Source of the DNA: Sphingorhabdus sp.
GTDB lineage: Bacteria; Pseudomonadota; Alphaproteobacteria; Sphingomonadales; Sphingomonadaceae
Length of the DNA: 64,000 nucleotides
Assembly: GCA_028279555.1 (NCBI GenBank)
Contig: JANQNO010000005.1
Location: 434,001 to 498,000 of the forward strand
Direction: 5' to 3'
Both the position numbers and the translations under genes were made by a program. The notes below the pieces were generated by a model. That model searched no databases. It saw nothing but the letters and a program-made list of their open reading frames with translations, and was not told the DNA's origin. Every line of letters begins with the position of its first letter. The stretch's first letter is position 1. Below are positions 45,132 to 49,364 of the stretch, piece after piece.

Positions 45132-46979
45132 TCAATAAACACCGTCACCCTGCAGCAATTCCAGCAGGCGGCGTTCAAACTGTTCCTTTTCGCTTCGCAG
45201 CCGCTGCTGCTCGGCGTAATTTTCTTCCGTCAGATCTTCGCTGGCGCGTCGTGTGGCCACATCAAGCGCTTCTTCCAATGCAGGCCGTTGCCGCATTAGC
45301 TTGATGGCTTCTCCCAGTTCGTCAGATCTTCGGGAAGCAACTTCCCTTTGCCCGGAGCTGATTCGGCGATTGAATCCAAAGGCTTTTCCGTCCCCATGAA
45401 GCAGCTCTTGAGCCCTATTATACAACTTCTCCCCCAATATGGTAGGCAAGTCTTGCTTATCAAGGCTTTCTTTTTCGTAGGATGCGGAAATCAGGGCATC
45501 GAGCAAGGCGGCGTCATCACCGCTTTTGGGAATAAAATCCTCCAGCGCGTCGCGGTGCTCGGTAATCTGGCCGGGATCGAGCAGGAAACTGGCAATGATG
45601 CCATGCAAGAGGAGATCACTGCCCTGTTGGCTGAAAGACCGCGTTTCCTTCCCTGGCGCAGCGTAACGGCCCTGTTTCCAACCCCCTTTTGCCTGGGTCC
45701 TTCGCTGTGATTGATATTGCTGCCTTGCGAAAAGCAGATCGAAGCGTTCGCGAAAAGCATCGGCATAGTGACGTCTGATCTCGCTGTTTGCGATGTTGGA
45801 CAGGTGAACGCCGAGCCTTGCCTTCAGGCCGGCCCTGTCTTCCGGGGTTAAAAGCGGCTCGGCGGAATATTCGGCTTTCCAGAGCTTTTCGACCAGCGGT
45901 TCGGCCTGTTCCAGCAGGTCGGCAAAAGCTATCGATCCCGATGATCTCACCACGTCATCGGGATCCTGACCTTCGGGCATGGTGACAAAATTAAGGCTAT
46001 GGCCGGGTTTGAGCAGCGGGAGCGCTCGCATCGCAGCGCGCATCGCTGCCTTCTGGCCGGCATTATCGCCATCGAAACAGAGCAGGGGCTTTTCGGTCAG
46101 CCGCCAGAGCATCTGGATTTGCTGTTCGGTGACGGCCGTGCCAAGTGGTGCCACCGCATCTGTAATGCCAACCTGTGCCAAAGCGATCACATCCATGTAG
46201 CCTTCGCAGACAATGACGCGGCCCGTCTGGCGCGAGGCGGGCGATGCCTGATCGAGATTATAGAGCGTGCGTCCCTTGTCGAAGAGCGGCGTGTCCGGCG
46301 AGTTCAGATATTTGGGTTCGCCGTCGCCTAATATACGACCGCCGAACGCAATCACGCGCCCGCGTGGATCGCGGATCGGGATCATCAGGCGGCCGCGGAA
46401 GCGGTCATAGGGCTCCTTGTCCTCGACCGAGATCAACAGGCCCGCCTCGATCAGCTTTTCTTCGCCAAACTCCTGGAGGGCGGACTTGATGGCCCCGCGA
46501 TTGTCGGGCGCGAAGCCAAAGCCGAAGCGTTTTATCGTTTCGGGCTCAATACACCGCTTTTCCAGATAATCGCGCGCCTTCGCGCCTTCGATGCTGCCCA
46601 GCTGCCGGACGAAGAAATCCTGCGCCGCCGTCATGACGTCATAGAGCGAATTGCGCTTTTCGGCGCGTTTGGCAGCGCGCGGATCGGGAGCCGGGACCTC
46701 CATTCCGGCCTCGGCGGCGAGTTCCTTCACGGCATCCATAAAGCCCAGCCCGCGCTGTTCGGTCATCCATCGGATCGCATCGCCATGCGCGCCGCAGCCG
46801 AAACAGTGGTAAAAGCCCTTCTCGTCATTGATCGTGAAGCTGGGTGTTTTCTCGTTATGGAAGGGGCAGCAGGCCTTATATTCGCGCCCCGCCTTCTGGA
46901 TGCGCAAACTGCGCCCGATCAGCGACGAAAGCGTGATCCGGCCCCTGAGTTCATCCAGCCATTGCGGGGAAAGCGCCAC
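45132..46979 (-). CDS. dnaG: DNA primase DnaG
   Basis: A 615-residue primase. The N-terminal zinc ribbon (CPFHNEKTPSF ... CFGCGAHGD, residues 38-64), RNA-polymerase/Toprim core (VIVCEGYMDVIAL then LCFDGDNAGQKA) and a C-terminal helicase-binding domain are present. The start is a GTG at 46979 directly after the TGA of the DUF559 gene. Its ribosome site GGGAGGGG lies inside the terminal repeat of that inserted cassette. Confidence 0.97.
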   Translation of the reverse strand: MALSPQWLDELRGRITLSSLIGRSLRIQKAGREYKACCPFHNEKTPSFTINDEKGFYHCFGCGAHGDAIRWMTEQRGLGFMDAVKELAAEAGMEVPAPDPRAAKRAEKRNSLYDVMTAAQDFFVRQLGSIEGAKARDYLEKRCIEPETIKRFGFGFAPDNRGAIKSALQEFGEEKLIEAGLLISVEDKEPYDRFRGRLMIPIRDPRGRVIAFGGRILGDGEPKYLNSPDTPLFDKGRTLYNLDQASPASRQTGRVIVCEGYMDVIALAQVGITDAVAPLGTAVTEQQIQMLWRLTEKPLLCFDGDNAGQKAAMRAAMRALPLLKPGHSLNFVTMPEGQDPDDVVRSSGSIAFADLLEQAEPLVEKLWKAEYSAEPLLTPEDRAGLKARLGVHLSNIANSEIRRHYADAFRERFDLLFARQQYQSQRRTQAKGGWKQGRYAAPGKETRSFSQQGSDLLLHGIIASFLLDPGQITEHRDALEDFIPKSGDDAALLDALISASYEKESLDKQDLPTILGEKLYNRAQELLHGDGKAFGFNRRISSGQREVASRRSDELGEAIKLMRQRPALEEALDVATRRASEDLTEENYAEQQRLRSEKEQFERRLLELLQGDGVY

Positions 46980-47366
46980 TCAAATCCCCTCCCGTTCACG
47001 GGAGGGGTTAGGGGAGGGCATATTTCGAATGCAATTCGAAATCCCAGTCAGCACACCTTCCACATTGTTCAAAACTTCATTATTCCAGAACCTTATAACA
47101 CTGTATCCTTCAGCTTCGAGATATCGTGTGCGAGATTGATCATAGCCAATCTGATGGCCATGAGACTCTCCATCCAGTTCGATCACCAGTTTGCGGCTCC
47201 GTGAGGCAAAGTCGCAGATATAGGGACCTATACAGACCTGCCGATTGAACCGAACGCCTTCCATTTTTCGTGCGGACAAATAGGGCCAAAGTTTCTTTTC
47301 TGCGGGAGTAGCCGCATTCCGCAACTCTCTTGCCCGAACTGTCTTTCTGGGTTTGAACTGTCTCAT
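46980..47366 (-). CDS. DUF559 (Vsr-like) endonuclease-domain protein
   Basis: A 128-residue protein. The ATG at 47366 is preferred over an in-frame TTG four codons upstream that lies within the repeat. The PD-(D/E)xK-type fold is indicated by RFNRQVCIGPYICDF (about 39-53), then LVIELDGESH (about 60-69), and GYSVIRFWNNEVL near the C-terminal part. The last dozen codons (SPNPSREREGI) and the upstream ribosome site are formed from flanking 33-bp inverted repeats. Biochemical function of the family is unsettled. It may act on DNA ends or repeats. It interrupts the yqeY-dnaG-rpoD operon. Confidence 0.85.
   Translation of the reverse strand: MRQFKPRKTVRARELRNAATPAEKKLWPYLSARKMEGVRFNRQVCIGPYICDFASRSRKLVIELDGESHGHQIGYDQSRTRYLEAEGYSVIRFWNNEVLNNVEGVLTGISNCIRNMPSPNPSREREGI
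46986..47018. repeat. Left 33-bp terminal inverted repeat of the DUF559 cassette
   Basis: The plus strand begins CCCCTCCCGTTCACGGGAGG and ends GGTTAGGGGAGGG. CCCCTCCCG and CGGGAGGGG form a 9-bp stem around a 4-base loop. It is the inverted partner of 47368-47400, 28 of 33 bases identical, with four of five differences in the loop. Confidence 0.88.
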
Positions 47367-47367
47367 T

Positions 47368-47400
47368 CCCTCCCCCAACCCCTCCCGCTTGCGGGAGGGG
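47368..47400. repeat. Right 33-bp terminal inverted repeat of the DUF559 cassette
   Basis: The plus strand begins CCCTCCCCCAACCCCTCCCG and ends CTTGCGGGAGGGG. It has the same 9-bp stem with loop CTTG as its partner. It lies 15 bases beyond the yqeY stop and ends just before the DUF559 start. Confidence 0.88.
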
Positions 47401-47415
47401 AGTAAAGTTCCCGTA

Positions 47416-47865
47416 TCAGCCCAACGCCGCCTTCACAGCCGCGCTTGCCTTGCCCATATCGAGCTCGCTGCCATGGCGCTGCTTCAAAAGCCCCATGACT
47501 TTTCCCATATCCTTCATGCTTTCCGCGCCGACCTCCGCCTTGATGGCGTCGATGGCTGCGGCCATTTCCGTATCGCTCATCTGTGCGGGCAAATAATTCT
47601 CAATCACCGACAGCTCGGCCTTTTCTGCCGCAGCCAATTCATCGCGGCCGCCTTCCTCATACATCTGGATGCTTTCCCGGCGCTGCTTGGCCATTTTCTG
47701 TAGCACGGCCATGACATGCGCGTTGTCATCGGCAATATCCTTGCCGCGCATTGCGATATCCTCATCCTTGATCTTTGCCGCGATCAGGCGGAGCGCCGCC
47801 ACCTTGGCTTTTTCGCCGGCTTTCATTGCGGCGACCTGCGCGGATTTTATGTCGTCTCTCAGCAT
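47416..47865 (-). CDS. GatB/YqeY domain protein
   Basis: A 149-residue cytosolic protein of the YqeY family, related to the tail domain of GatB amidotransferase. It is fully helical and typical in length. Visible family features are the N-terminal DDIKSAQVAAMKAGEK and the C-terminal DMGKVMGLLKQRHGSELDM. Proposed to affect tRNA-dependent amidation, though its role is unproven. First gene of the dnaG-rpoD operon, now separated from dnaG by the DUF559 cassette. Confidence 0.9.
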   Translation of the reverse strand: MLRDDIKSAQVAAMKAGEKAKVAALRLIAAKIKDEDIAMRGKDIADDNAHVMAVLQKMAKQRRESIQMYEEGGRDELAAAEKAELSVIENYLPAQMSDTEMAAAIDAIKAEVGAESMKDMGKVMGLLKQRHGSELDMGKASAAVKAALG

Positions 47866-47921
47866 CGTGTTATCCCGTCATTCACAACCTGTTTTGCTTC
47901 GGATTTTCTCGCCAAGAGGCG

Positions 47922-48007
47922 TTGTCCTGAACTTGTTTCAGGATAACTCTATCGACCAGCATTACTAAGGTCGCAAGAGCGTTATGCTGAAATAAATTCA
48001 GCATGAC
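47922..48007. repeat. Paired hairpin repeats in the yqeY-carA intergenic region
   Basis: Hairpin 1 (47925-47943) is TCCTGAA / TTCAGGA around CTTGT. Hairpin 2 (47984-48004) is ATGCTGAA / TTCAGCAT around ATAAA. The two units face each other as an imperfect inverted pair (GGATAAC ... GTTATGC). A REP/BIME-type element. The remaining bases up to carA presumably hold its promoter, which I could not pin down. Confidence 0.7.
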
Positions 48008-48128
48008 GAGGTTCTGGGCAGCTTATCCACATCTCTTTCCATTCAGCGATTGACGCTGGCAGATGACGGCACTAGCAGCGGTGCCTTAGCGACATTGCGA
48101 GAACCACCGATTCACGAGGAGCGCCTCT

Positions 48129-49364
48129 ATGGCTAACCCCGACATGACTGCTGCGCCTGAAGGAGCAACGGGCGTATTGGTTCTGGCGGATGGCAGCGTC
48201 GTGTGGGGCAGGGGCTTTGGGGCCGAAGGCGATGCGGTCGGCGAGCTATGCTTCAACACCAGCATGACCGGTTATCAGGAAATCATGACCGACCCGAGCT
48301 ATGCCGGGCAGGTGATCTGTTTCACTTTCCCGCATATCGGCAATGTTGGGACAAATGCGGAGGATGTAGAGGCGGATGAGCCGCATGCGCTGGGCTGCGT
48401 GCTACGTGAAGATGTGACAGACCCTTCGAATTTCCGTTCGACGCAGCATTTTATCGACTGGATGGAAGAAAATGGCCGGATTGGCCTCGCGGGCGTCGAT
48501 ACCCGCGCGCTAACGCGGCGGATCAGGCTGGCGGGCGCACCCAATGTGGTGATCGCGCATGCGGCGGGCGGCCAGTTCGATATCGATGCACTGCTCGCCA
48601 AAGCGCGGGGCTGGGCAGGCCTTGAAGGCATGGATCTGGCGAAAGATGTGACGCGCGAAGACCAAGCCGACTGGACGGGCGGCGTCTGGCGATTGGGTGC
48701 GGGGTATGAGGGTGAATCAAACACCGCAAGCCCTGAGCCAGTCGAAGGGCGGCTCAAGACCGAGAAGCGTGCTTTGACAAGCTCAGCACTAACGGTTTCT
48801 GATCGACCCCATGTCGTCGCCATCGACTATGGCGCGAAGCATAACATATTCCGAAATCTTGTGAAAGCTGGTGCAAAAGTCACTGTGGTTCCAGCGAAAA
48901 CATCACTGGAAGATATACTCGCGCTTGGGCCGGCAGGCGTGTTCCTGTCCAATGGTCCGGGCGATCCGGCGGCCACAGGCGAATACGCGGTGCCGGTGAT
49001 TGCGGGTCTGCTGGAGCGCGATATTCCGCTTTTCGGCATATGTCTGGGGCATCAGATGCTGGCGCTGGGGGCGGGCGCGAAAACCACCAAGATGCATCAG
49101 GGGCATCGCGGCGCCAACCACCCGGTAAAGCGCCACGCGGAAGGAGTGGTGGAGATCACCAGCATGAATCACGGCTTTGCGGTCGATGGCGCGACGTTGC
49201 CGGGCAATATCAAGGAAACGCATGTCAGCCTGTTTGACGGCTCCAATTGCGGGATCGAGATCGAAGGCAAACGCGCCTTCGGCGTGCAATATCACCCCGA
49301 AGCCTCACCAGGCCCGCAGGATAGCTTCTATCTCTTCGAGAAATTTGTGGGGATGTTGGGGTGA
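48129..49364 (+). CDS. carA: Carbamoyl-phosphate synthase small subunit
   Basis: A 411-residue glutamine amidotransferase subunit providing ammonia to CarB for arginine and pyrimidine synthesis. The N-terminal CPSase domain includes SMTGYQEIMTDPSYAGQ. The class I amidotransferase domain has GICLGHQ (nucleophile Cys) and YHPEASPGPQD (His/Glu). GAGGAG precedes the ATG. Residues about 197-226, just before HVVAIDYGAKHNI, are encoded by a family-1 palindromic repeat placed in frame in the inter-domain linker. The stop overlaps the following ORF. Confidence 0.97.
   Translation: MANPDMTAAPEGATGVLVLADGSVVWGRGFGAEGDAVGELCFNTSMTGYQEIMTDPSYAGQVICFTFPHIGNVGTNAEDVEADEPHALGCVLREDVTDPSNFRSTQHFIDWMEENGRIGLAGVDTRALTRRIRLAGAPNVVIAHAAGGQFDIDALLAKARGWAGLEGMDLAKDVTREDQADWTGGVWRLGAGYEGESNTASPEPVEGRLKTEKRALTSSALTVSDRPHVVAIDYGAKHNIFRNLVKAGAKVTVVPAKTSLEDILALGPAGVFLSNGPGDPAATGEYAVPVIAGLLERDIPLFGICLGHQMLALGAGAKTTKMHQGHRGANHPVKRHAEGVVEITSMNHGFAVDGATLPGNIKETHVSLFDGSNCGIEIEGKRAFGVQYHPEASPGPQDSFYLFEKFVGMLG
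48716..48804 (-). repeat. Family-1 palindromic element inserted in frame in carA
   Basis: Left arm 48716-48750 and right arm 48770-48804 are inverted copies. The outer ends are ATCA and TGAT, with inner CCTGAGCCAGTCGAAG matched by CTTTGACAAGCTCAGCAC. Read on the minus strand it aligns with the pdhC element through both arms and differs mainly in an 11-base centre. It encodes EPVEGRLKTEKRALTSSALT. Confidence 0.85.

What the first reader, a model, noticed from the sequence alone, without database searches (positions are those of the whole stretch)
46980..47400. A DUF559 nuclease gene bounded by 33-bp inverted repeats looks like a minimal mobile cassette
The two repeats are inverted relative to each other, 28/33 identical, and each folds into a perfect 9-bp stem with a tetraloop. 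Nearly all differences are in the loops, so structure is conserved. The only gene between them is a Vsr-like endonuclease. Its start region and last dozen codons are made of repeat sequence. It interrupts the conserved yqeY-dnaG-rpoD order. This suggests a nuclease that mobilises or maintains its own hairpin repeats, analogous to REP-associated tyrosine transposases but with a different enzyme.
Basis: partly seen in the sequence, partly recalled or inferred. Interest (0 to 1): 0.82.

Follow-up and report, generated by a model that had tools for sequence, protein, structure and literature searches.

The report
Nuclease gene paired with hairpin repeats
A small DNA-cutting enzyme gene sits between two hairpin-forming repeats, and the same pairing recurs in many bacterial groups, which makes this enzyme family a leading candidate for the unknown partner of bacterial hairpin repeats that have no known transposase.

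Summary
The window gene is a DUF559 (Vsr-fold) nuclease between two inverted hairpin repeats. Inverted flanking repeats occur at 54 of 62 DUF559 genes of the order (7 of 787 neighbouring control ORFs), 44 of 67 elsewhere in the phylum (3 of 153 controls) and 69 of 80 named loci from many taxa. The nuclease tree splits once by repeat class (60 labelled rows). Within genomes, nuclease similarity predicts repeat similarity (r 0.62; 0 of 2000 permutations). The repeats also occur as gene-free inverted doublets (REPIN-like) that do insert: 4 of 24 congeners carry different doublets in frame at one codon position of valS. The gene-bearing unit itself looks old: patchy at yqeY-dnaG, divergence tracking dnaG among close relatives, a one-hairpin scar in two. 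Stand-alone GIY-YIG nucleases show the same architecture with other repeats, including CGTC-tagged REPs, which a 2013 survey says lack a dedicated transposase; the two enzyme families share three intergenic sites. Best reading: a nuclease-REP partnership analogous to RAYT-REPIN but with a homing-endonuclease-type enzyme. That the nuclease mobilises the repeats is inferred, not shown.

The parts
46980..47366 (-). DUF559 (Vsr-fold) nuclease gene; ORF as listed runs 46980-47378 from a TTG inside the repeat, likely start ATG at 47366
   Evidence: fold
47368..47400 (-). yqeY-side (upstream) repeat: hairpin 47379-47400, G-rich tail 47368-47378 pointing into the gene, end type TTG
46986..47018 (+). 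dnaG-side (downstream) repeat: hairpin 46986-47007, G-rich tail 47008-47018 pointing into the gene, end type TTA; encodes the C-terminal codons of the nuclease on the - strand
46978..47408 (.). whole unit with 44-nt inverted arms (46978-47021 and 47365-47408)
   Evidence: absent from 25 of 30 genomes at this site
47416..47865 (-). yqeY, upstream neighbour
   Evidence: annotated order yqeY-DUF559-dnaG in Sphingomonas parapaucimobilis
45132..46979 (-). dnaG, downstream neighbour

Best explanation
The locus is one instance of a nuclease-REP system: a small Vsr-fold (homing-endonuclease-like) DUF559 enzyme together with its own class of hairpin repeats (C-rich arm, loop, G-rich arm, then a second G-rich arm pointing inward). 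Shown: the architecture, its recurrence, the match between nuclease lineage and repeat class, constraint on the nuclease, and insertion of gene-free repeat doublets. Inferred: the nuclease recognises hairpin plus tail, perhaps as extruded single strand, nicks or cuts there or at the target, and break repair copies a doublet (about 86 to 150 bp) into the cut with loss of a few target bases and no target duplication. The gene-bearing unit is the stable source; the doublets are its non-autonomous passengers.
For: Inverted flanks at 54/62, 44/67, 25/28 and 69/80 DUF559 loci against 7/787 and 3/153 control ORFs. By strict patterns 26 of 62 loci show the same directional class on both sides with tails inward. 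Class I and II repeats correspond to one split of the nuclease tree, 41 and 19 rows, although class II nucleases sit at many loci. Within genomes r 0.62, 0 of 2000 permutations. Repeat counts follow nuclease counts in the genus (Spearman 0.58) and are higher in E. coli with ycjD (median 22 against 7.5; clonally confounded). Doublets have unlike ends in 35 of 36 pairs. Insertions in valS. dN/dS 0.06-0.12. E16, E56, D58, H62 invariant and D45 in 90% or more of 26 members. A Caulobacter DUF559 protein is needed for the SOS response of a methyltransferase mutant (PMC12907096, passages).
Against: No biochemical evidence. Linkage alone (gene and repeats inherited together) could give the match. G036 and G057 carry class C repeats without a class II nuclease among the hits found; 3 of 13 congeners without a counted nuclease still have one or two A repeats. 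Eight of 62 DUF559 genes score below the threshold, three of them a lineage without repeats. Two of eight genomes show little within-genome match. E. coli ycjD has a repeat on one side only. RAYT genes in these genomes were not searched for.
Confidence: 0.66

Rival explanations
1. Passenger model: the repeats are moved by another enzyme (a RAYT or unknown factor). The nuclease gene merely lives between two copies, uses them as leader and terminator, and is inherited with them.
For: Nuclease divergence tracks dnaG among close relatives; a G-rich tail lies where a ribosome-binding site would; repeats occur in some genomes without the matching nuclease.
Against: Of 787 control ORFs only 7 have such flanks and the strongest is another nuclease, GIY-YIG; the match of class and lineage holds across many loci; neither window repeat has the GTAG tag of RAYT repeats.
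Confidence: 0.17
2. Intergenic homing endonuclease: the enzyme cuts the empty yqeY-dnaG (or other) allele in a recipient and the unit is copied in by recombination; the repeats are secondary, for example expression signals or recombination scars.
For: Nearest folds after 3hrl include the homing endonuclease I-Bth0305I; patchy occupancy of fixed conserved sites; three sites are shared with GIY-YIG nucleases, a family also known for homing (recalled).
Against: Does not explain dispersed doublets or their insertion inside valS; close-relative divergence fits vertical descent.
Confidence: 0.12
3. Genome-maintenance enzyme: a Vsr-type repair or hairpin-processing nuclease that keeps hairpin repeats from harming replication, sitting next to its substrates by selection.
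For: Vsr fold; Caulobacter VsrA is proposed as a mismatch-repair enzyme (PMC12907096, passages).
Against: Far below the Vsr family cut-off; often absent while repeats remain; does not explain repeat spread.
Confidence: 0.05

Closest known systems
RAYT (TnpA-REP) with GTAG REPs / REPINs
   Same: Small enzyme gene flanked by inverted REPs; dispersed inverted dimers without a gene; few gene copies; enzyme lineage and repeat class go together (last point for RAYTs recalled)
   Different: Enzyme is a Vsr-fold nuclease, not an HUH tyrosine transposase; repeats have a G-rich inward tail and the window copies have no GTAG tag
CGTC REPs (Di Nocera et al. 2013, PMC3733652; abstract, sections 6 and 17 and passages read)
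   Same: Short dispersed palindromes, mostly dimers, intergenic and intragenic, no dedicated transposase known
   Different: Window repeats are CCCTCCC-type without CGTC; CGTC-like copies were seen here flanking GIY-YIG genes instead
I-Bth0305I homing endonuclease (3r3p)
   Same: Fold (TM 0.68 by query length) and profile relation (E 7.2e-5)
   Different: A phage intron enzyme with no palindromic repeat family (recalled)
Vsr mismatch endonuclease (1vsr); Caulobacter VsrA
   Same: Fold; VsrA contains a DUF559 domain (PMC12907096, passages)
   Different: 16.8 bits against a Vsr cut-off of 97.85; link to methylation not tested here
E. coli YcjD (b1289)
   Same: DUF559; a CCCCTCGCCCC-hairpin-GGGTGAGGGG repeat lies downstream; 22 places in K-12, the ycjD place included
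   Different: Repeat on one side only; the repeat resembles the old 'box C' repeat (recalled, not checked)

Membership tests
DUF559 (PF04480) | profile match over the curated cut-off | tested here: met
   128.3 bits against 20.6
Vsr-like PD-(D/E)XK nuclease fold | fold and conserved acidic/His core | tested here: met
   Foldseek 3hrl, 3r3p, 1vsr; E16, E56, D58, H62 invariant, D45 in 90% or more. Catalysis itself not tested
Vsr mismatch endonuclease (TIGR00632) | score over the curated cut-off | tested here: not met
   16.8 against 97.85 bits
RAYT-REP system | HUH tyrosine transposase between the REPs | tested here: not met
   the only gene between the repeats is DUF559
RAYT-REP system | GTAG-tagged palindromes | tested here: not met
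   no GTAG in either 33-nt window repeat
RAYT-REP system | dispersed inverted doublets without the gene | tested here: met
RAYT-REP system | enzyme binds and cleaves the repeat | not testable with these tools
   needs purified protein
CGTC REPs | terminal CGTC motif and CCA tail | tested here: not met
   window repeats start CCCC and have a G-rich tail
DDE insertion sequence or MITE | target-site duplication | tested here: not met
   valS doublet of G075 replaces about 10 nt, no duplication seen (one well-matched case)
Homing endonuclease | cleavage of the empty allele | not testable with these tools
   empty alleles exist
Known anti-phage defence protein | PADLOC model match | tested here: not met
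   0 families at E 0.01

The most novel reading that the evidence does not exclude
Bacteria carry a widespread class of transposase-free repetitive elements: REP/REPIN populations driven by stand-alone homing-type nucleases of two unrelated folds (DUF559/Vsr-like for G-tailed REPs, GIY-YIG for CGTC and related REPs), which spread hairpin doublets by break-and-copy rather than by transposition.
Probability: 0.45. Interest if true: 0.93.

Novelty: new variant of a known kind. Interest (0 to 1): 0.85.

Why it matters
[quoted passage not shown] The genomic pairings found here name candidate enzymes for that class (GIY-YIG) and for a second, G-tailed class (DUF559), give a testable role to a family annotated as of unknown function, and can be tested in laboratory E. 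coli K-12, which has ycjD and about 20 copies of a matching repeat.

Tried and rejected
Rejected: chance palindrome (reversed control 0; control ORFs). Rejected: known RNA family (none at E 1 in 46700-47700). Rejected: known defence protein. Phage or plasmid origin as the main story is not favoured: tblastn at 1e-5 finds relatives in 5 of 50,697 phage records and 39 of 72,556 plasmid records. The toxin-subunit rows at E 0.2-0.63 are taken as chance and were not followed.

Considered: G-quadruplex capacity of the G-rich strand. A four-tract motif is on the inward strand of 48/116 and 49/134 DUF559 flanks (opposite strand 15 and 20; shuffles 0.060 and 0.034) and 2/66 GIY-YIG flanks. Suggestive only.

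Limits of the counts: the threshold of 19 was chosen. DUF559 flanks were measured from the domain ends, control flanks from ORF ends (with 20 nt of overlap), and GIY-YIG and genus flanks with slightly longer windows. Of 75 DUF559 rows, 62 were used and 13 left out. L080 was left out of the controls. One of the three controls over threshold (L223) scores 96, unexplained. Repeat labels were set by eye; L089 was mislabelled D, corrected to E after and recounted (1 change; 2 as first labelled). L076 (fragment) was left out of the tree, which has only 106 columns. Of 29 new genus loci one (L363, weak) was left out. GIY-YIG: 33 of the listed hits of the window's family and 7 from other families were fetched (L122 not analysed); of 30 loci, 5 of the window's family were left out. 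In one search G063's weak hit counts as none and weak second hits of G287 and G072 were dropped; no phylogenetic correction. In one search two outward-facing pairs of G075 were left out. In one search, 24 of 30 loci were aligned. In one search one plasmid row was dropped. The yqeY comparison failed and is not used. The ribosome-site scan (39 of 57) is loose, with some hits far upstream.

Full report
OBSERVATION. At 46978-47408 a DUF559 gene lies between two hairpin repeats in inverted orientation: 28/33 identical, each with a perfect 9-bp stem and tetraloop, four of the five differences in the loop and one in the tail. The gene matches PF04480 (E 1.5e-37) and separates yqeY from dnaG. The G-rich tails point into the gene. 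The likely start ATG (47366) follows the tail GGGGGAGGGA, so the repeat may also supply the ribosome-binding site (sequence reading; the scan is loose).

THE SAME GENOME. The 2.75 Mb genome has two DUF559 genes. The second (L002) is also bounded by palindromic repeats, of another class. The window's stem pattern matches 17 distinct sites; four pairs lie 37 to 100 bp apart, at least two of them tail-inward and one tail-outward.

GENERALITY. I scored local inverted similarity between the two flanks of each DUF559 domain. In the window's order 54 of 62 score 19 or more; of 787 other ORFs in the same regions 7 do, and the only one at 25 or more is a GIY-YIG nuclease gene. In the phylum outside the window's family 44 of 67 do, against 3 of 153 controls. 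In the window's genus 25 of 28. In 80 named loci from a separate collection 69 of 80: 27 of 30 Sphingomonadales and 42 of 50 others, with record titles such as Rhizobium, Dyella, Desulfobacteraceae, Smithella, Melainabacteria, Binatia and Marinimicrobia among those over the threshold. Exceptions exist: a lineage with shared neighbours (L099, L110, L113) has no repeats. By eye a common design runs through most repeats: C-rich arm, loop, G-rich arm, short spacer, second G-rich arm, with or without a second hairpin. By strict patterns 26 of 62 loci have the same directional class on both sides with tails inward; L104, L115 and L002 show another order or class; in the rest the patterns miss a side or match only the undirected stem.

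NUCLEASE AND REPEAT MATCH. Repeats fall into class I (CCCTCCC or CCCTCTCCC-like stems) and class II (TCCTCCCC stems followed by GGGGACC or GGTGGC and a second hairpin). On a quick tree of 65 nuclease domains (106 columns), 41 class I and 19 class II rows need one change; five rows are unlabelled (labels by eye, one corrected). The splitting branch has support 99. Class II nucleases occupy many loci, and one site (s4, next to an accC-like gene, name recalled) holds class II units in three genomes and a class I-side nuclease, L117, with a repeat on one side, in another. A label-free test among copies of one genome gives a pooled correlation of 0.62 between protein and repeat similarity, 0 of 2000 permutations as high (8 genomes, 43 loci; G048 0.03 and G039 0.26 are weak). 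Hitchhiking of repeat with gene would also give this.

SOLO REPEATS. With fixed patterns over the same 60 genomes, class A repeats occur in 14 of 60 (13 of 16 in the window's family, 1 of 44 elsewhere) and class C in 12 of 60 (12 of 16, 0 of 44), up to 168 A matches in one genome; reversed controls are 0. G018 and G042, with only weak DUF559 hits, have neither. Against this, G036 and G057 have class C repeats and no class II nuclease among the hits found. Within the genus, nuclease and A-repeat counts correlate (Spearman 0.58, p 2e-4, 36 genomes); 14 of 23 genomes with a nuclease have A repeats, 3 of 13 without (no phylogenetic correction).

DOUBLETS INSERT. A-type repeats often form tail-inward pairs of 86 to 106 bp, several with related spacers. 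In two genomes 35 of 36 such pairs have unlike ends (YYG at one, YYA at the other); the window unit has the same two ends. In valS (name recalled from sequence) 4 of 24 aligned congeners carry a doublet in frame at the same position: A type in G075, A-like in G088, class II types in G086 and G066. Fourteen others have 11 nt there, four have 26, one 14, one 44. In G075 the doublet replaces about ten bases, without target duplication. Another doublet lies in an open frame that reads as uvrA in G086.

THE GENE UNIT IS OLD. At yqeY-dnaG 5 of 30 genomes (the window's own included) are occupied and 25 are not; G067 and G084 keep one degenerate hairpin without the tail. Occupancy needs 5 changes on the dnaG tree. 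Yet among G073, G066 and G086 nuclease and dnaG DNA identities agree (0.89/0.88, 0.81/0.80, 0.78/0.79), while in more distant pairs the nuclease is less conserved (0.56-0.60 against 0.72-0.74), and dN/dS is 0.06-0.12. This fits vertical descent with repeated loss better than recent hopping of the gene. The same order yqeY-DUF559-dnaG is annotated in a Sphingomonas parapaucimobilis replicon, with inverted flanks (score 40).

THE ENZYME. In 26 members R9, E16, W20, E56, D58, G59, H62, D69, R72 and R85 are invariant and D45 nearly so. The model (pLDDT 92) matches 3hrl, then the homing endonuclease I-Bth0305I (3r3p); E. coli Vsr (1vsr) is sixth, behind two mitoribosomal chains. Profile search agrees (3hrl 6.4e-34, 3r3p 7.2e-5). 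A DUF559 protein of Caulobacter, VsrA, is required for the SOS response of a methyltransferase mutant (PMC12907096; passages seen; the terms palindrom, REP element and inverted repeat do not occur in that text).

A SECOND ENZYME FAMILY. Stand-alone GIY-YIG genes have inverted palindromic flanks in 29 of 33 fetched from the window's family and 2 of 7 from other families of the order, and in 17 of 25 elsewhere in the phylum, with other repeat families, among them CGTCATTCCCGC-type copies. GIY-YIG and DUF559 units share three sites: yqeY-dnaG, odhB-lpd and accD-folC (the last two named from sequence, recalled). Di Nocera et al. 2013 (PMC3733652; abstract, sections 6 and 17, passages) state that CGTC REPs lack a dedicated transposase and that none of the RAYT or IS200 genes is flanked by them.

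E. COLI. K-12 ycjD (b1289) is DUF559; a matching repeat lies downstream but no inverted partner upstream (score 11). ycjD is found in 3365 of 5426 genomes. Repeat places per genome have median 19. In 59 listed chromosomes they number 14-33 (median 22, the ycjD place included) in 37 with ycjD and 2-23 (median 7.5) in 22 without (Mann-Whitney p 1.8e-8). Clonal structure confounds this, and several genomes without ycjD keep 15-23.

LITERATURE. Searches for DUF559 with palindromic, DUF559 or repetitive extragenic palindromic (13), DUF559 alone (14), GIY-YIG with REP or palindromic terms (26, 42, 85), REPIN, RAYT and nuclease (43), UPF0213 with palindromic (46), Vsr with REP sequences (76) and homing endonuclease with REPIN (86) listed no paper whose title or abstract start links either nuclease family to REPs; PMC12306157 was only searched for terms. 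The library lacks most subscription journals and all bioRxiv preprints.

MECHANISM. Shown: architecture, recurrence, matching, constraint, doublet insertion. Inferred: that the nuclease recognises and cuts its repeat or the target, and that repair copies doublets. I put this at 0.66; passenger, homing and maintenance models share the rest.

Noticed in passing
window 48129-49364 (carA-like ORF): The protein carries an internal stretch [17 protein letters not shown] that looks like the product of another palindromic repeat inserted in frame (similar to repeats seen beside a GIY-YIG gene in L154).
   Followed up: no
window 47920-48010: Between yqeY and carA lies another repeat-like stretch (GAACTTGTTTCAGGATAAC ... 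CTGAAATAAATTCAGCATGACG).
   Followed up: no
L154-L186 and L374-L399: Stand-alone GIY-YIG nuclease genes are often flanked by inverted palindromes, including CGTC-type REPs reported to lack a dedicated enzyme.
   Followed up: partly
L420, L422, L425, L440 (valS): One position of valS has received different repeat doublets in four congeners, all kept in frame.
   Followed up: partly
L414: A doublet lies in an open frame that reads as uvrA in G086.
   Followed up: no
L450 1700-1744 (E. coli K-12): The repeat downstream of ycjD has many copies in most E. coli, but only 3-4 in three O25:H4/ST131 records listed; a fourth ST131 record shows no ycjD beside fabI.
   Followed up: partly
L099, L110, L113: A divergent DUF559 lineage with shared neighbours (sufC-like, recalled) has no flanking repeats; it may be domesticated.
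   Followed up: no
L223: A control ORF near two DUF559 genes of G250 also has very strong inverted flanks (score 96).
   Followed up: no
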